Source of the DNA: an uncultured Pirellulaceae bacterium
GTDB lineage: Bacteria > Planctomycetota > Planctomycetia > Pirellulales > Pirellulaceae
DNA length: 44,802 nt
Direction of reading: 5' to 3'
Assembly: GCA_937921995.1 (NCBI GenBank)
Contig: CAKZVF010000270.1
Span: forward strand, 1 to 44,802
Below, one piece after another: positions 30,645 through 40,895 of this stretch. Both the position numbers and the translations under genes were made by a program. The notes beneath the pieces are model-generated. The model was given only the letters and a program-made list of their open reading frames with translations. It searched no databases and had not been told where the DNA came from. The number at the start of each line of letters is the position of its first letter. Positions within the stretch are counted from its first letter, which is position 1.

Positions 30645-33512
30645 ATGCAGCGCCAACGGTACTTGATGATCGCCGTCACCGGTTTGGTCGCGATGATCGC
30701 TCAGCTGGTTTGGTACCGCTATGCGTCGCAAATTCTTGGCCAATCGGCACTGACCGTTGCGGCGGTGGTCGCATCGGCGCTTTTTGGATTAGCCGCCGGC
30801 AGCTGGTGGGGTGGGAAACATGCCCGGTTGGCCGCGCCTTGGTACGTTGCGGCCATGGGCCTTGCAGTCTTGCTGGGCCAAGCCTTTTCCTATTGCCTGC
30901 CATCGGTACAGCCATATTTAGCATCGACGCATGCGGGTTGGACCATCGTTGTGGTAGCTCCGTTGTGGGTCATCAACTTCTTTGCCGGAGCCGTGTTTCC
31001 GCGTTTGCTTTCTCAGGAAAATAATTCGCCAGTCGTAGGCGGCCTCAGTGCCGCCGAAACTTTGGGCGGATGTGTCGGAGCCATCTTCACCGGATGCTTT
31101 GCGGTGCAAAACTTTGGCTTAATGCCAACGCTGATCGGTGGCGGGCTATTGGCGCTCGCGACCGGCGTCTTGGGAAGAAAAGAAAAGCGCGATGAAGCGG
31201 TCAGTTCAACGGATCCTCAGATTCAGCAATCCCCTATTGAACTAAGTATCTTGGTCGCCGTCTGCGTGTCGGGAGTTGCGTCTTTAGGCATGGAGGTCGT
31301 TTGGCAGCGGTTACTGATCCTCATCGTTGGAACCGATACGTTCAGTTATGCCATTGTCGTGAACAGTTACCTTTTGGGGATCGCTGTCGGAGCGGCCATC
31401 AGTGGCATTTGGCTTCGCATGCGGCCCGATGTCCTTTCAAAACTGCGGCTGCAATCGGTGGCAATACTACAAGTCTTATCCGCCATCAGCGGCTTAGGTG
31501 TTCTGGTCGTGGTGATCTATTCAGCATCGGGGCCAGGGCAAGCTTGGATCAGCGGGAGTCTTTTCGGATACGATGTTCCGCTGGTGAAGCGGTTGCTGCT
31601 ATGTGGCGGTCTGCTGATTGTGCCGACCGCGCTGCAAGGGGCGCTGTTCCCGTTAATTGTTGACGCAGTGGCAGACAGCCGTTGTGATTTAGCTTCACCC
31701 GGGGGCAAAATTTATGCGACGGTGGCAGTCGGTAATGTTATTGGCGTTTTGATTTGCGGATTCTTTTTGATTCCGCAGTTCGGCCTTCAGGTTTCCGCGG
31801 CGATCCTCGCTGTCGTCGCGACGATCGCTGCTTGGTTGTTGACTCCCAAGAAAATCAGCAACGCATTGTTTGGATTGACGATTCTCGTGTGCGCGTTGTG
31901 TGGTCAGCGTCTACTGTTCAAAGACGCCATCGGCTTGGCGATCAATCCCGAGCAAACGTCCAAATTTTTCTACCGCGAAGGTCCCGCTCACACGGTTTCA
32001 GTTCTGGCCGATAGAACAAACCTCCACCACCGCCGGATGACGGTCGACGGGATCGTGATCGGCCAAAGCGGTAAGAATGCCGAAGAAAAACAATTGATGC
32101 TGGCTCATCTTCCGGCGCTTTTGAACTATCAATCTCATCCGGTTGAAAACGTTGTGGTGATCGGTTTGGGGTCTGGCCTTTTATCGGGAGAGGTGGCTGC
32201 TATTGCGGGTGTGGAATCGGTCAACACGATCGAGCTCTCACCGGCGGTTATCGAGGCCAGCCAATACTTCGCTGATCTGTGGCCCGCGAATCCTGTTGCT
32301 CAAACGAAAATCACGCAAGCCGATGGAATTCACTGGTTAAGCCGCAGCCACGCCGACGCTCAACCGCTGGACGCCATCATCAGCGACGGTAAATCGCGAC
32401 CGGGTCACGTTGGCAACGCGGCTTTCTTTTCCAGCGACTACTATCGCCGGGCCGTGGGTCGGCTGAGCCCCCACGGCAAATTCGTGCAGTGGTTTTCGCT
32501 GGACGCGGCGGTAACAGAGACCCAAACGGTAATGAAAACATTTGCTGAATCATTTCCGCACGCGGCAATTGCCATCGCGGCGCCCGATTCGATCTATCTG
32601 GTAGGCGGTCGGCAGCCGATTGAAATGAAATCAACCAACGCCCAATCCTACCTGAATCTGGCAACGTCAAAGTCACTGAACAAATACCATTGGCGTTCGG
32701 CGGATGACCTGCGTTCGATGGTTTGGCTGAGAATAGACGTTGACGAAGTTTTACTGGGGAGCAGGGGTCCTAATTCACTGAACCGCCCCATCCTTGAGCA
32801 GTTTTCATTTGATACGCGCCCGGAGACATTAACCAACAACAAGATTGAAAATCTCGAGTTGCTCAAGTTATTAGTCAACAATTCCGAAACGGATTCCGGC
32901 CTGTTCACGGATGACTTGCAATCCAATTTAGCATTCACTTCGGCCGCAACTGATTTGATTGAATCCTCCATTTCGGTTTTGAAGCGCGAACAAGGCTGGC
33001 TAGACAAAGCGTCAGCTCAACTGGAACCAGCGCTCAAGACGCTACCGCAACTTCATCGCGGCGTGGTGCTGGCCAATAGCTACCTCGTCGCGGCAGAAAT
33101 GGCATCTGCTAAAAATGACAAACCCGGTGAAATCGCGATGATCAAACGCGCCGCGCAGCTATGTCCCGCCGACGATGAACTTCAATTGAAAATTGGGCAG
33201 CGTCTACTTGTCCTGGGCGACGCTGATTCAGCGCTGCCGCACTTTTTGAACGTCATCGCGTCTCAGCCCAAAAGCCGGTCTGCCAACAAAGGTGCTGCAA
33301 AGGCGCTGGTCAAAATGCAAAAAACCGAATCAGCGCTTCCCTATTTTCAAAAAGCGCTGGCCGCCCCGGAAGCCGCTTTAGATGCCGATTTGATCAGGCT
33401 GAAAAAGGTTTTTGAACTCTCTGAACCAATCGAGCAACCGGTCCCAGGGCAGGATTTGATCGACAGTATGAAGAGGCTGCTCCAAGAGGAAGAATCGTCG
33501 AACGAAAAATAG
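30645..33512 (+). CDS. Membrane-fused spermidine synthase-like protein with TPR tail
   Basis: This 955-residue protein has three parts. Residues 1-430 hold about twelve to fourteen membrane helices (for example GLVAMIAQLVWYRYASQILG, then ASLGMEVVWQRLLILIVG in a repeated half). Residues about 440-660 resemble spermidine synthase: VIGLGSGLLSGEVA is a SAM-binding loop, then VNTIELSPAVIEASQYF, ADGIHWL and DAIISDGKSRPGHVGN. Residues about 790-930 look like tetratricopeptide repeats (ALPHFLNVIASQPKS, ALPYFQKALAAPE). Such fusions are common in planctomycetes; the true substrate is uncertain. The ATG is three bases after the permease stop, so it may be co-transcribed. Confidence 0.85.
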   Translation: MQRQRYLMIAVTGLVAMIAQLVWYRYASQILGQSALTVAAVVASALFGLAAGSWWGGKHARLAAPWYVAAMGLAVLLGQAFSYCLPSVQPYLASTHAGWTIVVVAPLWVINFFAGAVFPRLLSQENNSPVVGGLSAAETLGGCVGAIFTGCFAVQNFGLMPTLIGGGLLALATGVLGRKEKRDEAVSSTDPQIQQSPIELSILVAVCVSGVASLGMEVVWQRLLILIVGTDTFSYAIVVNSYLLGIAVGAAISGIWLRMRPDVLSKLRLQSVAILQVLSAISGLGVLVVVIYSASGPGQAWISGSLFGYDVPLVKRLLLCGGLLIVPTALQGALFPLIVDAVADSRCDLASPGGKIYATVAVGNVIGVLICGFFLIPQFGLQVSAAILAVVATIAAWLLTPKKISNALFGLTILVCALCGQRLLFKDAIGLAINPEQTSKFFYREGPAHTVSVLADRTNLHHRRMTVDGIVIGQSGKNAEEKQLMLAHLPALLNYQSHPVENVVVIGLGSGLLSGEVAAIAGVESVNTIELSPAVIEASQYFADLWPANPVAQTKITQADGIHWLSRSHADAQPLDAIISDGKSRPGHVGNAAFFSSDYYRRAVGRLSPHGKFVQWFSLDAAVTETQTVMKTFAESFPHAAIAIAAPDSIYLVGGRQPIEMKSTNAQSYLNLATSKSLNKYHWRSADDLRSMVWLRIDVDEVLLGSRGPNSLNRPILEQFSFDTRPETLTNNKIENLELLKLLVNNSETDSGLFTDDLQSNLAFTSAATDLIESSISVLKREQGWLDKASAQLEPALKTLPQLHRGVVLANSYLVAAEMASAKNDKPGEIAMIKRAAQLCPADDELQLKIGQRLLVLGDADSALPHFLNVIASQPKSRSANKGAAKALVKMQKTESALPYFQKALAAPEAALDADLIRLKKVFELSEPIEQPVPGQDLIDSMKRLLQEEESSNEK

Positions 33513-35295: not shown

Positions 35296-38280
35296 ATGTC
35301 AGTCGCCACTCGAAAAGAATTCATCGCCTGCGTAACCAAAAGCAAGGCGATCCCAGAGAAGAAGCTAACCGCTTGGCTAGAAGTCGTCGACGAAGAAGAT
35401 CCCAAAAAACTCGCGACCAAACTGGTGCGCGACAAACTGCTGACGGCTTGGCAAGCCAAATTTTTAATCTCTGGCCGGTCCCGGTTAAGCGTCGGCAATT
35501 ACATTCTGCAATCACGGATTTCACGGGACGAACTGGGCGACAAGTTCGAAGCGATTCATTCTCAACTCAATCGCAAAGTCGTCATTCAGGTTTTTCCCTC
35601 GAGCATCGCCAAGAACGAAGCGTTGCTCAAAAAGCTGATGAAGAAACTACGTCAAATCACCGAACTTGATCACCCCAATCTTGTCCACATCTACGACGTC
35701 GATCAAGAAGGCGATCGCTATTTTTTGGTCGCCGAATACGTTCAAGGACAAACCTTGGATTCCGTTTCGCCAAGTGATCTCACCGAAAGCGAAATCGCGG
35801 GCATTATTGAAGGCGTTGCGTCCGGGTTGTCGTACGCTCATCAAAGCAAGATCCTGCATGGCAACATTACTGCAGAAAATATTTTCGTGACGCCCGAGGG
35901 TAAAGCCGAACTTCAAGGTTTTCCGTCGGCGATCTTAATCAATGAAACTGACGGGCAAGAGAAAAAAGTAAGCACGTCAAAAGATTTTTATCGTTTGGCA
36001 AAAATTGGATCGACATTATTAAAAGAGATGCCCAAGGCTTCTCGTTCTGAAAACTTCGCCGACATTGCAGCGCTGGTGGTCGATCTCAAGGACGACGAAA
36101 AACGTGATGCGAGTATGGCTTCACTGAAAGATTGGGTCACTTCGAATCTTGGGCGCGAGGCGGAATCTTCGGACATCCAACTCCAACCCGAAGAAGACTC
36201 GTTCGTATCGGATACTTCTGTCGCAGGTGCCGGTGACTTCGATGCACCGATGACGACGGTGCCGCAAACGACGTTGAAAAAGAAAAAGAAGAAGGTAGAA
36301 GAAGCGGACCTCAAATCCGACGATCGCGGTTTCTTCAAAAAGATGTGGGAGGACAAACGAGCCGCCTTCATTGCATGTTCGGCAGCGCTTTTCTTATCGG
36401 TCGCTGGCGGACTGGGAGCGATCGGATACGCACTAACCTCCGGAACCAACAACGGTATAAACGCTCAGGTCGCTCTCAACGAAAAGAAAGTCCCCGGCGG
36501 CAAGCTGAATCTTAAAGTTCAAGACAATCTCGCCGCAACCAAAGACGTGCCGCTGGCGACCACCAACGCCGCAGAAGGCGCACTGTCATTGAACGACCGA
36601 AATTTGAAACCCACCGATGAAGTTTTAGACCCCGAAGCCAACCGGAAGAAATTGGCAGAATTCTTCGCCAAACGCGATGGTGCCAAACCAGGCTCCGGAA
36701 ACCCTGCACCAGGAAACCCTGCACCAGGAAAACCAGCACCAGGAAAACCGGCCCCCGGAAAACCAGCATCAGGAGGACCGGCGAAGCTTACTAAAAAACA
36801 GCGCAATCAACAAAGGCGGAAAAAAAATGAGACCGCTGCTCAAGCAAAGAAGGCAGCGGGCACTAACCAAGAAAATCCAGCCCCCGCAATTAGCGCTGAT
36901 GCTCCCGCGAATGCGGAAGAGACTGGCGTTGCTGCCAGCCCTCCTTCTGAACCGGCCGAACAGCCCGACGGTGTCCCGGAGATCACCAACCTCACAATCA
37001 TCAGAGGAATTGCTGACAAGACGCAAGCCTACCTCAATAATGGCGGTGTCGAAACAATGCAACAACTGGCCGCGCTGAGCCCGGCGGATGTTCAAGCCGC
37101 GTTGGTCAAAGGCAACTGGAAGGGCCCCAGCCGAATCAAAGAAGCCGCTGACTGGATCGCTCAAGCCAAAGAAATTACTGGCGACAGTTCCCCGATGAAG
37201 CCGTCGGCCGATTCAACCGCCAGCGTGCCGGCCGCGACGGCGAATACTCCCGACAAGCCTGCGGAGGCAGCAAAGACGCCGGCAAAGATTGGCAACCCGT
37301 TCGAGAAATTTGCGAAAAGAATCGACCTGCCAGCAATAACGGAGACATCTGATCTCAAAATTGGCGATCTTGTTATCGCCAAGAATCACTTGTTGGGACT
37401 AGAGCTGTTAGCCGGCCCCGAAATCGCGCGAAGCAAAATCGAACTAAAGCTCAAACGTACCGAAAATGACAAACAATTGTGGAACGTCGAACTGGGTGTC
37501 AAACGATCCGATCCGGTCGCAATCGCCCAATTTCAAAAGACGCCAACGGAGATGAAGTTTCGCTGGCTGCCATCGGCGGCCGAAAACAAGGGTGTGGATG
37601 CGCTTAGTAATTGTATGCTCAAACTCTCCACGCCCAAAGACTCGCAGTGGTTGGGGCTGCGTAAGCCCGTTGCGATAGAAAACCTTAACTTCACTGAAGA
37701 CCAAGGATTTGTAAAATCCGAAACGGAGATAGGCTTCTTACCCAACCCGTCGGCTTTAAAAGCAGAACTTCAACCCATTCCCTTTAAAGTGGAAACCGAA
37801 GAAGAAAAAGCGATTCAACTCAGCTATAACCCTCGCCAAATCACCAAGCGCGAACCCGGCAGGATTTTCTTTCATCGAGCGGAAACCAGCCGGTACTTCT
37901 ACGTCGAGGTTGCCACGGACATTCGCAAAAAGTCACGTTTTACGGCCCAAATGATGTTGACGTTCCCTAACCGCGGTCCACAGGTCGTACGTTCGATCGG
38001 CGATCTGGTCGATATTGCCAGAGCGATCGAACCTCAGAAAACAGAAGCCATGAACCGCTTCCAACAGTCTCTGAGTGCGAAAAAACCTGGTGGTATGGAA
38101 GTCACGGAATTCAACCGTTTGAAGAAAGAAGCCAAAGACAATGCCAACCAACTCCAAAAGCTGGCCAAAATTTCGAGTCAAAACATAGCCGTCGCTAAAG
38201 AGTTCTCGGGCAAAAAGATTAAGCTTCAAGTCTATTTCGAGATGGGGGGGCACAGGATCATTGTTGCCGAATCGAAGTAG
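35296..38280 (+). CDS. Transmembrane pseudokinase (Ser/Thr kinase-like) with HHH-like and low-complexity regions
   Basis: This 994-residue protein opens with the short helical module seen at the start of planctomycete Ser/Thr kinases (LVRDKLLTAWQAKFLISG, then VGNYIL). A kinase-like domain follows (about 68-285), but its key residues are changed: the VAIK lysine is Gln98 in VVIQVF, HRD is HGN (188-190), the catalytic-loop lysine is Thr192, and DFG is GFP (208-210). Asn195 is kept. A membrane helix lies near 357-380. Outside it are a fivefold GxPAP repeat (468-497), a helix-hairpin-helix-like domain (about 562-632, TIIRGIADKTQAYL and MQQLAALSPADV) and a C-terminal region of unknown fold. It is very likely not an active kinase and may bind protein or nucleotide. 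It stands alone between the membrane pair and argC. Confidence 0.85.
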   Translation: MSVATRKEFIACVTKSKAIPEKKLTAWLEVVDEEDPKKLATKLVRDKLLTAWQAKFLISGRSRLSVGNYILQSRISRDELGDKFEAIHSQLNRKVVIQVFPSSIAKNEALLKKLMKKLRQITELDHPNLVHIYDVDQEGDRYFLVAEYVQGQTLDSVSPSDLTESEIAGIIEGVASGLSYAHQSKILHGNITAENIFVTPEGKAELQGFPSAILINETDGQEKKVSTSKDFYRLAKIGSTLLKEMPKASRSENFADIAALVVDLKDDEKRDASMASLKDWVTSNLGREAESSDIQLQPEEDSFVSDTSVAGAGDFDAPMTTVPQTTLKKKKKKVEEADLKSDDRGFFKKMWEDKRAAFIACSAALFLSVAGGLGAIGYALTSGTNNGINAQVALNEKKVPGGKLNLKVQDNLAATKDVPLATTNAAEGALSLNDRNLKPTDEVLDPEANRKKLAEFFAKRDGAKPGSGNPAPGNPAPGKPAPGKPAPGKPASGGPAKLTKKQRNQQRRKKNETAAQAKKAAGTNQENPAPAISADAPANAEETGVAASPPSEPAEQPDGVPEITNLTIIRGIADKTQAYLNNGGVETMQQLAALSPADVQAALVKGNWKGPSRIKEAADWIAQAKEITGDSSPMKPSADSTASVPAATANTPDKPAEAAKTPAKIGNPFEKFAKRIDLPAITETSDLKIGDLVIAKNHLLGLELLAGPEIARSKIELKLKRTENDKQLWNVELGVKRSDPVAIAQFQKTPTEMKFRWLPSAAENKGVDALSNCMLKLSTPKDSQWLGLRKPVAIENLNFTEDQGFVKSETEIGFLPNPSALKAELQPIPFKVETEEEKAIQLSYNPRQITKREPGRIFFHRAETSRYFYVEVATDIRKKSRFTAQMMLTFPNRGPQVVRSIGDLVDIARAIEPQKTEAMNRFQQSLSAKKPGGMEVTEFNRLKKEAKDNANQLQKLAKISSQNIAVAKEFSGKKIKLQVYFEMGGHRIIVAESK
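36697..36783 (+). repeat. 15-base tandem repeat coding for GxPAP units
   Basis: About six copies of a 15-base unit (GGAAAACCAGCACCA-like) encode GNPAP, GNPAP, GKPAP, GKPAP, GKPAS and GGPA in the linker of the pseudokinase. It probably makes a flexible stalk outside the membrane and could vary in length between strains. Confidence 0.9.
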
Positions 38281-38579: not shown

Positions 38580-39590
38580 ATGATTCGCGTTGGTATCGTT
38601 GGCGCGACCGGCTACACGGCGGTCGAGCTACTTAAAATCTTACTTCGTCATCCAGAAGTCTCCGTCACCGCGATCACGTCGCGCGATCCCAACACGCCCC
38701 ACCTATCGGAGGTTCATCCCGGCCTGCGCGATCAACTGAATCTGAATTTTTCGCAATTGGACATCCCAAACTTCTGCGAATCGGTGGACGTTGCGTTTTG
38801 CTGCCTGCCCCATGCCGCCTCTGCCGAAATCGTTGGGCAATTGGTCGATGCGGGTGTGCGTGTCATTGATTTCAGCGCCGACTATCGGCTCAACGATGTG
38901 GAGACATTTGAAAAATGGTACGGAGTCCAGCACCCCGACGCGGCGCGTGTTGGAAACGTTGCCTATGGCATTCCTGAATTATTCCGAGCAGCAATTAAAG
39001 AAGCGGACGTCGTTGCAAACCCCGGCTGCTTTCCTAGTTCGGCGCTGCTTCCGCTGGCTCCACTGCTCAAAGCAGACTTAATCCAAGCGGCACCGATCAT
39101 CGTGGACTCAAAGACCGGTATCTCAGGGGCCGGCCGCAAAACAAATCTAAAATTTCACTACCCCGAATGCAACGAATCCATTTCGGCTTACGGGATCGGC
39201 ACACACCGCCACATGCCCGAAATTGATCAGATCATCAAACGATTCTGTGGAACCGATGTAGAAACCGTATTCACCCCGCATCTGACCCCGATGGATCGAG
39301 GCATCTTGTCAACGATCTACGTTCAGCCCAAAAACAAAACCAATGCCTCTGACGTGATGGACTGTTGGAACGATTTTTATAAAGACGAAATTTTTGTACG
39401 GCTCTCTCCAGATTTGGTTGCCACCAAGAACGTTTCGGGGACGAACTTCTGCGACATCGCCGCGCGAGACTCGCGCGGCACCATCGTCATCGTCAGCGCG
39501 CTCGACAACCTGATCAAAGGCGCGTCGGGCGCCGCGGTGCAGAACTTCAATGTGATGCACGGCTTCGACGATACTTTGGGTATGCTTTAG
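38580..39590 (+). CDS. argC: N-acetyl-gamma-glutamyl-phosphate reductase
   Basis: ArgC reduces N-acetyl-glutamyl phosphate to the semialdehyde with NADPH in arginine biosynthesis. The 336-residue protein shows the nucleotide-binding start VGIVGATGYTAVELLKILLRHP, CCLPHAASAEIV, and the catalytic cysteine in VANPGCFPSSALLPL. SKTGISGAGRK and FTPHLTPMDRGI are further family motifs. argJ follows on the same strand after a REP-like element, so both may be one transcript. No ribosome site is evident. Confidence 0.97.
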   Translation: MIRVGIVGATGYTAVELLKILLRHPEVSVTAITSRDPNTPHLSEVHPGLRDQLNLNFSQLDIPNFCESVDVAFCCLPHAASAEIVGQLVDAGVRVIDFSADYRLNDVETFEKWYGVQHPDAARVGNVAYGIPELFRAAIKEADVVANPGCFPSSALLPLAPLLKADLIQAAPIIVDSKTGISGAGRKTNLKFHYPECNESISAYGIGTHRHMPEIDQIIKRFCGTDVETVFTPHLTPMDRGILSTIYVQPKNKTNASDVMDCWNDFYKDEIFVRLSPDLVATKNVSGTNFCDIAARDSRGTIVIVSALDNLIKGASGAAVQNFNVMHGFDDTLGML

Positions 39591-39710: not shown

Positions 39711-40895
39711 ATGCAACTACCTTTAGGATTTCGTTATGCGGGCGTGGCGTGTGGCATCAAGCCCTCGGGAAAAGAGGACCTAGCCATCATCAGCACCGAA
39801 GCACCCGCGATCTGTGCAGGTGTGTACACGCAAAACATCGTGCGAGCGGCCAGCATTGATTTCAACCGGCGCATGACTCCCTGCGATCATTTTCGCGCAC
39901 TGGTCATTAATTCGGGCAACGCCAATGCGTGCACCGGATTTGAGGGCATCAAAAACAATCAAGCCATGGCCACGGAGGTCGGCAAGCATCTGGACACCGA
40001 ACCGGCAAACATTGGCGTGCTGTCCACTGGCATCATCGGTGTGCAACTGCCGATGAAAGAAGTCACCAGCGGCATCGCGGCGGCCGTCAAAGCCCTCAGC
40101 CCCGAAGAAGAAAGTTTCACCGCGGCCTCAAAAGCCATCACCACCACGGATCAGTCTCCCAAGACCTCTCACCTAACCTACAACATCGACGGCGATCAAG
40201 TCCGCATTTCTGCGATGGCCAAAGGGGCCGGCATGATTGGTCCTCGGATGGCGACCATGTTGGCGGTTGTGATGACCGACGCTCCCCTGACGCCAACGGT
40301 GGCTCAGTCAATTTTAGCAACAGCCAATGCCAAATCATTCAATCGGATCAGCGTCGAAGGCCACATGAGCACCAACGACGCGGTGATGCTGATCGCCACC
40401 GGACGCTCCCCAGCGCAGCTCGATTCCGCCCCTTTGATCGCTCAGCTGACAGCGTTCATCTCCGACACGTGTATCGACCTTGCCAAAAAAATCCCCTCCG
40501 ACGGCGAAGGCGCGACACATTTGATAGAGATCATCGTCACCGGAGCGAAAACGGATGCCGATGCCGATCGGATCGCTCGCACCGTTGCCAATAGCGCTTT
40601 GGTGAAAACGGCCATCACCGGCGGTGACCCAAACTGGGGACGAATTGTATCGGCCGCCGGATACGCCGGAGCCGACATTGACGCCGACGCCATCAGTCTA
40701 AAGATCAATGGCCACCAATTGTTCAAGCAAGGGCAACCCGTCGAATTTAGCGCGCCCAAAGTCAGCGCTGCCATCGCGGACAACTTCGAAACCACAATCG
40801 AACTTGCCGTCGGCACCGGTTCGGGTCAGTTCAATCACTGGACCAGCGACCTCACCGTTGACTACGTAAAATTCAACTCTGAATACACGACGTAA
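39711..40895 (+). CDS. argJ: Glutamate N-acetyltransferase / ornithine acetyltransferase
   Basis: ArgJ moves the acetyl group from N-acetylornithine back to glutamate; bifunctional versions also make N-acetylglutamate from acetyl-CoA. The 394-residue protein carries AGVYTQNIVRAASI, NSGNANACTGFEG, and the self-cleavage site in KGAGMIGPRMATMLAVVM, where the threonine of ATM becomes the nucleophile of the beta chain. GDPNWGRIVSAAGYAG is also diagnostic. It follows argC by 120 bases. Other arg genes are not present, so the pathway is split in this genome. Confidence 0.97.
   Translation: MQLPLGFRYAGVACGIKPSGKEDLAIISTEAPAICAGVYTQNIVRAASIDFNRRMTPCDHFRALVINSGNANACTGFEGIKNNQAMATEVGKHLDTEPANIGVLSTGIIGVQLPMKEVTSGIAAAVKALSPEEESFTAASKAITTTDQSPKTSHLTYNIDGDQVRISAMAKGAGMIGPRMATMLAVVMTDAPLTPTVAQSILATANAKSFNRISVEGHMSTNDAVMLIATGRSPAQLDSAPLIAQLTAFISDTCIDLAKKIPSDGEGATHLIEIIVTGAKTDADADRIARTVANSALVKTAITGGDPNWGRIVSAAGYAGADIDADAISLKINGHQLFKQGQPVEFSAPKVSAAIADNFETTIELAVGTGSGQFNHWTSDLTVDYVKFNSEYTT

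What the first reader, a model, noticed from the sequence alone, without database searches (positions are those of the whole stretch)
35296..38280. Transmembrane pseudokinase with every standard catalytic residue replaced
The protein keeps the planctomycete N-terminal kinase module and the overall kinase fold, but the ATP-binding lysine (to Gln98), the HRD aspartate (to Asn190), the catalytic-loop lysine (to Thr192) and the DFG aspartate (to Gly208) are all changed. The gene is otherwise intact (994 codons) and has extra domains outside the membrane (GxPAP stalk, helix-hairpin-helix-like domain, unknown C-terminus). A conserved but dead kinase suggests a sensor, scaffold or binder.
Basis: partly seen in the sequence, partly recalled or inferred. 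Interest (0 to 1): 0.7.

Follow-up and report, generated by a model that had tools for sequence, protein, structure and literature searches.

The report
Conserved dead receptor-like kinase in Mariniblastus
A marine planctomycete carries a membrane protein built like a receptor kinase whose phosphorylating machinery is gone; relatives show that the loss is old and that the dead domain is strongly preserved, so it probably works as a scaffold or switch, not as an enzyme.

Summary
ORF 35296-38280 (+) encodes 994 aa with a kinase domain (PF00069, E 5e-16). Gln98, Asn190, Thr192 and Gly208 occupy the VAIK-Lys, HRD-Asp, catalytic-loop-Lys and DFG-Asp positions. "Every" residue is slightly too strong: catalytic-loop Asn195, HRD His and alphaF Asp remain.
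It is not recent decay. Orthologues occur in 26 of 27 other genomes of the genus (Mariniblastus, Pirellulaceae). Beta3 is Gln in 27 of 27 rows, DFG Asp absent in 27 of 27, HRD Asp in 25 of 27. The N-terminal part is under purifying selection (dN/dS 0.04-0.15 where computable). Models are confident (pLDDT 91 and 90): a kinase fold, and a family-typical C-terminal domain (Ig-like sandwich plus helical hairpin).
The gene sits in a supported clade without any four-residue member. The wider family shares the C-terminal domain, includes four apparently active kinases of 29 read, and lost catalytic residues several times. Dead members often lie directly upstream of argC-argJ.
Best reading: a non-catalytic membrane receptor or scaffold. 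Partner, ligand and any arginine link are unknown.

The parts
35296..38280 (+). CDS of the transmembrane pseudokinase, 994 aa
   Evidence: orthologues in 26 of 27 other same-genus genomes
35296..35478 (+). N-terminal helical module, residues 1-61 (LTxWQAKxLLxGR signature)
   Evidence: four helices in the model; W52, Q53, A54, K55 and L57 each in 26 of 27 rows, G60 in 27 of 27
35479..36165 (+). pseudokinase domain, residues 62-290
35587..35589 (+). Gln98 at the beta3 (VAIK) lysine position
   Evidence: Gln in 27 of 27 genus rows
35863..35865 (+). Asn190 at the HRD aspartate position
   Evidence: Asp absent in 25 of 27 genus rows; kept in L072 and L076
35869..35871 (+). Thr192 at the catalytic-loop lysine position
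   Evidence: Lys absent in 25 of 27 genus rows
35917..35919 (+). Gly208 at the DFG aspartate position
   Evidence: Asp absent in 27 of 27 genus rows
36232..36294 (+). juxtamembrane GDFDAPM...KKKKKK stretch, residues 313-333
   Evidence: a GxFDxP-like motif followed by basic residues recurs in about half of the 27 rows aligned (by eye)
36367..36423 (+). transmembrane segment, residues 358-376
   Evidence: hydropathy; a comparable segment in the other genus rows except L077, which is too short; L068 and L071 show one further hydrophobic window each
36685..36774 (+). GxPAP stalk repeat (15-bp unit, 6 copies), private to this gene
36985..37185 (+). HhH-like domain, residues 564-630, optional in the family
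37285..38277 (+). conserved C-terminal domain (CTD), residues 664-994: Ig-like sandwich (664-791), then strands and a long helical hairpin (helices 901-927 and 936-970)
   Evidence: model of residues 555-994 with pLDDT 90.4; fold comparison; match in 50 of 119 family genomes searched
38580..39590 (+). argC, conserved downstream neighbour
   Evidence: Pfam semialdehyde dehydrogenase domains; directly downstream in 22 of 22 genus genomes whose contig reaches it
39711..40895 (+). argJ, second conserved downstream neighbour
   Evidence: Pfam ArgJ E 1.4e-129

Best explanation
It is a catalytically dead, receptor-type Hanks kinase (a pseudokinase) with one main membrane span. Shown by sequence and models: an N-terminal helical module and a kinase fold without the four residues needed to bind ATP-Mg and transfer phosphate; a TM segment; a long variable linker; a conserved C-terminal domain made of an Ig-like sandwich and a helical hairpin; conservation across Mariniblastus with the kinase part among the more constrained parts. 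Inferred: the kinase part faces the cytosol and the C-terminal domain the periplasm; the outer domain senses or holds an envelope component or dimerises through its hairpin; and the dead kinase passes this on by binding partner proteins, not by phosphorylation. It would thus be a membrane scaffold or allosteric receptor, comparable in layout and logic to EssB/YukC or the MviN pseudokinase.
For: Loss in the orthologues: beta3 Lys to Gln 27 of 27, DFG Asp lost 27 of 27, HRD Asp lost 25 of 27. Structural anchors kept: HRD His188, alphaF Asp230 and Asp134, each 27 of 27. Purifying selection: window against L061 omega 0.07 (N module) and 0.11 (kinase), 0.17-0.18 for stalk, HhH and C-terminus; other computable pairs 0.04-0.15 for N module or kinase. 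Confident models and kinase-fold matches. A clade without any member that keeps all four residues: 38 rows, SH-aLRT 98; 28 rows, 96/91 in the careful tree; 28 rows, 92 on the C-terminal domain alone. Published precedent: EssB/YukC and MviN act as non-catalytic membrane scaffolds (PMC12599244, sections 4 part 1 and 8 read).
Against: No partner, ligand, localisation or phenotype is known. TM orientation was not shown: net charge around it is not decisive; the run of Lys before it favours kinase-in. dS is high or saturated in many comparisons, and omega could not be computed for Q/L062 C-terminus, L061/L062 kinase, L064/L067 N-terminal part and C-terminus, and L065/L067 C-terminus. The kinase is not always the most constrained part: window/L061 linker 0.06 (dS 2.8, saturated), and in L071/L074 the C-terminal part equals the N-terminal part (0.065 and 0.064). 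L072 and L076 still have HGDIK. The Mariniblastus rows are not one clade in the tree of the C-terminal domain alone. In 22 of the 25 genus genomes with a C-terminal-domain match there is a single match, so an active sibling with the same outer domain is usually not there to pair with.
Confidence: 0.6

Rival explanations
1. Nucleotide-binding switch: the domain still binds ATP or another nucleotide without transfer, and binding changes its shape, as reported for some eukaryotic pseudokinases.
For: Gln in place of the beta3 Lys is invariant (27 of 27), more than simple loss would need; N195 is kept here; the review notes pseudokinases that bind ATP with a changed beta3 Lys (PMC12599244 section 7).
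Against: Gly-rich loop reduced, no DFG Asp, no alternative invariant Lys. The review states that pseudokinases of the class lacking all three motifs nearly always lack ATP binding (section 5).
Confidence: 0.17
2. Atypical enzyme on a kinase fold (as SelO AMPylation or SidJ glutamylation).
For: The fold has been reused so before (PMC12599244 section 4); several polar residues are invariant in 27 of 27 rows (R74, H88, R93, Q98, H131, D134, D136, R141, H182, H188).
Against: Table 1 of that review gives a Lys in the VAIK column and an Asp in the DFG column for both SelO entries and for SidJ; both are lost here.
Confidence: 0.06
3. Regulator of arginine synthesis, tied to ArgC/ArgJ at the membrane or as their co-transcribed controller.
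For: Directly upstream of argC-argJ, same strand, in 22 of 22 genus genomes that reach; also in six other genera; gaps 5-407 bp in the 25 loci measured; upstream neighbours vary between subgroups.
Against: The wider block is partly conserved too and mixes functions: 13 loci share three further same-strand genes upstream, and a tRNA synthetase gene lies downstream of argJ. In five members of the clade (L090, L092, L097, L232, L234) argC was not found in the 1.2-4.6 kb available downstream. Of 56 argC-upstream stretches from other genera only five have such a protein. In the window the gap is 299 bp. No physical link shown.
Confidence: 0.12
4. Decaying kinase relic.
For: The HRD-Asp position holds varied letters (N, W, S, C, G, E, T); one genome of the genus (G018, 88% complete) lacks the gene.
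Against: No internal stop was flagged in the matches listed; low omega; 26 of 27 other genomes keep it.
Confidence: 0.02

Closest known systems
EssB/YukC, transmembrane pseudokinase of type VII secretion (PMC12599244 section 4 part 1 read)
   Same: Pseudokinase with all three motifs lost, degraded Gly-rich loop, shortened activation loop, a TM and a further C-terminal part; EssB has a scaffold role.
   Different: No YukC/EssB family match at E up to 1; the eight neighbours scanned include argC, argJ and a tRNA synthetase gene and no secretion family; different C-terminal domain; extra N-terminal module.
ActPs3 / MviN pseudokinase of mycobacteria (PMC12599244 section 8 read)
   Same: All catalytic motifs lost, activation-loop deletion, TM after the kinase domain in many members.
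   Different: MviN is fused to a large membrane protein (multi-span flippase: recalled). No conserved juxtamembrane Thr was seen here (by eye), so an MviN-like phospho-tail is not supported.
CTD-bearing kinases of other Pirellulaceae that keep all four residues (L225, L226, L233, L237)
   Same: Same N-terminal module, kinase and C-terminal domain; relatives in the tree.
   Different: Keep K, D, K, D. L233 and L237 have no argC in the 1.1 kb downstream; for L225 and L226 too little sequence was held to tell.
PknA/PknB/StkP-type receptor kinases
   Same: Kinase fold; among the best structural and sequence matches.
   Different: Those are active kinases (recalled); no PASTA domain match here.

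Membership tests
Hanks-type protein kinase superfamily | bilobal kinase fold recognised by PF00069 or structure | tested here: met
Active Ser/Thr kinase | beta3 Lys, HRD Asp, DFG Asp | tested here: not met
   Q98, N190, G208
Pseudokinase (general) | kinase fold lacking catalytic residues, conserved over evolution | tested here: met
Pseudokinase (general) | measured lack of phosphotransfer | not testable with these tools
   needs protein
EssB/YukC | match to a YukC/EssB family model | tested here: not met
   none listed at E up to 1 in Pfam or NCBIfam; that these libraries hold such a model is recalled
EssB/YukC | type VII secretion genes nearby | tested here: not met
   eight window neighbours scanned with Pfam, none
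EssB/YukC | kinase inside, one TM, C-terminal part outside | tested here: inconclusive
   TM found, orientation not shown
ActPs2 | beta3 Arg and a long activation-loop insertion (PMC12599244 section 7) | tested here: not met
   Gln98; short segment
GLW | GLW in place of HRD (PMC12599244 section 8) | tested here: not met
   HGN
ActPs3 / MviN | loss of all motifs with activation-loop deletion | tested here: met
ActPs3 / MviN | common ancestry with actinobacterial ActPs3 | not tested
   no ActPs3 sequence was fetched; the clade found here nests among Pirellulaceae kinases with the same C-terminal domain
PASTA kinase | PASTA repeats | tested here: not met
   no PASTA family; NF033483 only 89.6 bits against cut-off 450
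DUF4332 / HhH | score above the curated cut-off | tested here: inconclusive

The most novel reading that the evidence does not exclude
In Pirellulaceae a whole receptor-kinase family with its own outer domain signals mainly without phosphorylation: catalysis was dispensable, was lost several times independently, and one fully dead lineage became fixed beside argC-argJ, usually as the only protein of its genome with that outer domain, with an invariant beta3 Gln that marks a new ligand-sensing or docking pocket.
Probability: 0.3. Interest if true: 0.7.

Novelty: new variant of a known kind. Interest (0 to 1): 0.45.

Why it matters
Bacterial pseudokinases are little studied: the 2025 review that I read in parts speaks of seven annotated families, and 'planctomycet' does not occur in its text. 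Here a pseudokinase lineage, apparently active relatives with the same outer domain, and intermediates that lost one to three of the four residues all exist in one bacterial family. That makes a natural series for asking when and why a receptor kinase can do without catalysis. One one-contig genome of the genus (G025, 6.57 Mb) carries the gene, so a cultured host may exist (the tools show no name).

Tried and rejected

Literature: searches listed no paper on a planctomycete pseudokinase family; only listings with abstract starts were seen, of open-licence PMC papers. One listed paper (PMC3281104, on SelO) holds 'planctomycetes' once; it was not opened. PMC12599244: abstract, outline, found passages, and sections 4 (part 1 of 2), 5, 6, 7, 8 and 14.

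Rows left out: the careful tree left out 11 of 62 rows (L145, L095, act_L207 as long branches; L072, L077, L085, L086 as partial; L074, L070, L073, L078 as near-copies). The tree of the C-terminal domain left out L145, L095 and the same four near-copies. CTD-bearing proteins without a usable N-terminal match (L096, L229, L230, L231, L239, the second genes of L236 and L242) and the 5'-truncated L106 were in no tree. Family rows were taken from C-terminal-domain matches, best first, and some genera are present more than once, so the share of dead kinases is not an unbiased census.

Full report
WHAT IS THERE. The ORF 35296-38280 on the + strand codes for 994 aa without an internal stop. Pfam gives a protein kinase domain (E 5e-16, residues 80-227) and a sub-threshold DUF4332 match at 563-626. 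Q98, N190, T192 and G208 stand where the VAIK Lys, HRD Asp, catalytic-loop Lys and DFG Asp should be, both in an alignment with 38 relatives and in one with 30 other kinase loci of the same genome. The catalytic-loop Asn (N195), the HRD His and the alphaF Asp are kept, so not literally every residue is replaced. In its own genome (77% complete, 5% contaminated) it is the only one of 31 kinase-like genes that reads as lacking Lys, HRD Asp and DFG Asp together; two loci were not fully readable.

CONSERVATION. Of 27 other same-genus genomes searched, 26 have an orthologue of the kinase part; G018 (88% complete) has neither that (13 of 27 candidates scored) nor the C-terminal domain. Over 27 rows (window plus one per genome) beta3 is Gln in 27, DFG Asp is absent in 27, HRD Asp in 25 and the catalytic-loop Lys in 25; L072 and L076 keep HGDIK. 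The HRD and DFG replacements vary, whereas Gln98 does not. Window against its closest orthologue L061: omega 0.07 for the N-terminal module, 0.11 for the kinase, 0.06 for the linker (dS saturated), 0.17-0.18 for stalk, HhH and C-terminus. Other computable pairs give 0.04-0.15 for the N-terminal module or kinase; dS is high in several and omega not computable in five stretches.

FAMILY. The C-terminal domain was found in 50 of 119 family genomes, three of them of this genus, and by profile at E 1e-8 in 2 of 199 genomes drawn over the phylum, one of them the window's own, so it is centred on this family. In 28 genus genomes the profile matches in 25; 22 of these have a single match. I read 29 CTD-bearing kinase-like proteins from other genera, some genera more than once. 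Four keep K, D, K, D (L225, L226, L233, L237) and 25 have lost at least one (L095 could be read at beta3 only). A tree without the catalytic columns puts the window in a clade with no four-residue member: 38 rows, SH-aLRT 98; 28 rows, 96/91 in the careful tree; 28 rows, 92 on the C-terminal domain alone, where the Mariniblastus rows are not one clade. Fewest changes of state in the careful tree: beta3 Lys 6, HRD Asp 6, catalytic Lys 5, DFG Asp 8; the quick tree gives 4, 6, 5, 8. Losses thus happened more than once.

NEIGHBOURHOOD. argC follows on the same strand in 22 of 22 genus genomes whose contig reaches, and argJ in those that reach further (for G005 and G008 seen from the contig with the second half of the gene); four others end too soon. 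Of 56 argC-upstream stretches fetched from other genera (three under 400 bp), five have a CTD protein of this kind directly upstream (L106, L109, L115, L145, L148; L145 is a weak, long-branch match); L098 (same genus as L115) and L241 add to this: six further genera. The gap is 5 to 407 bp in the 25 loci measured, 299 bp in the window. The upstream side differs between subgroups: three same-strand genes are shared by 13 loci (by eye two 2-oxoacid oxidoreductase subunits and a glycosyltransferase), other genes in the window and four relatives. As the block mixes functions, an arginine role is only a lead.

READING. The most economical account is a membrane receptor or scaffold that signals by binding. 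Precedents with the same logic are EssB/YukC and MviN, described in the review PMC12599244 (sections 4 part 1 and 8); membership in those families is not supported here. 'planctomycet' does not occur in the review's text, so this looks like an uncatalogued pseudokinase lineage, within the limits of the open library searched.

Noticed in passing
L218 and L224 (own genome G000, C235 and C190): Two more kinase-like genes lack HRD Asp and DFG Asp but keep the beta3 Lys: further likely pseudokinases.
   Followed up: no
window 36232-36294 and orthologues: A short juxtamembrane GxFDxP-like motif followed by basic residues recurs in about half of the rows aligned (by eye); possible docking motif.
   Followed up: partly
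window 36685-36774: GxPAP stalk: six copies of a 15-bp repeat, its pattern found in none of the 26 other genus rows.
   Followed up: yes
L239 1663-4230 and L230 793-4053: The C-terminal domain profile also matches a protein with GAP1-N2/GAP1-M domains and one with a Laminin_G_3 domain, so the domain is not confined to kinases.
   Followed up: no
L072 and L076 (G023, G027): These two Mariniblastus proteins keep HGDIK while beta3 is Gln and DFG Asp is lost: retention or reversal is unresolved.
   Followed up: partly
G021 contigs C87, C194, C271: One genus genome has three further C-terminal-domain proteins beside the orthologue; extra paralogues or contamination.
   Followed up: no
L080, L098: Pseudokinase stop and argC start are only 5 bp apart, the best places to test co-transcription.
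   Followed up: no
window 30645-33512: A 955-aa protein with a spermine/spermidine synthase domain and TPR-like repeats.
   Followed up: no
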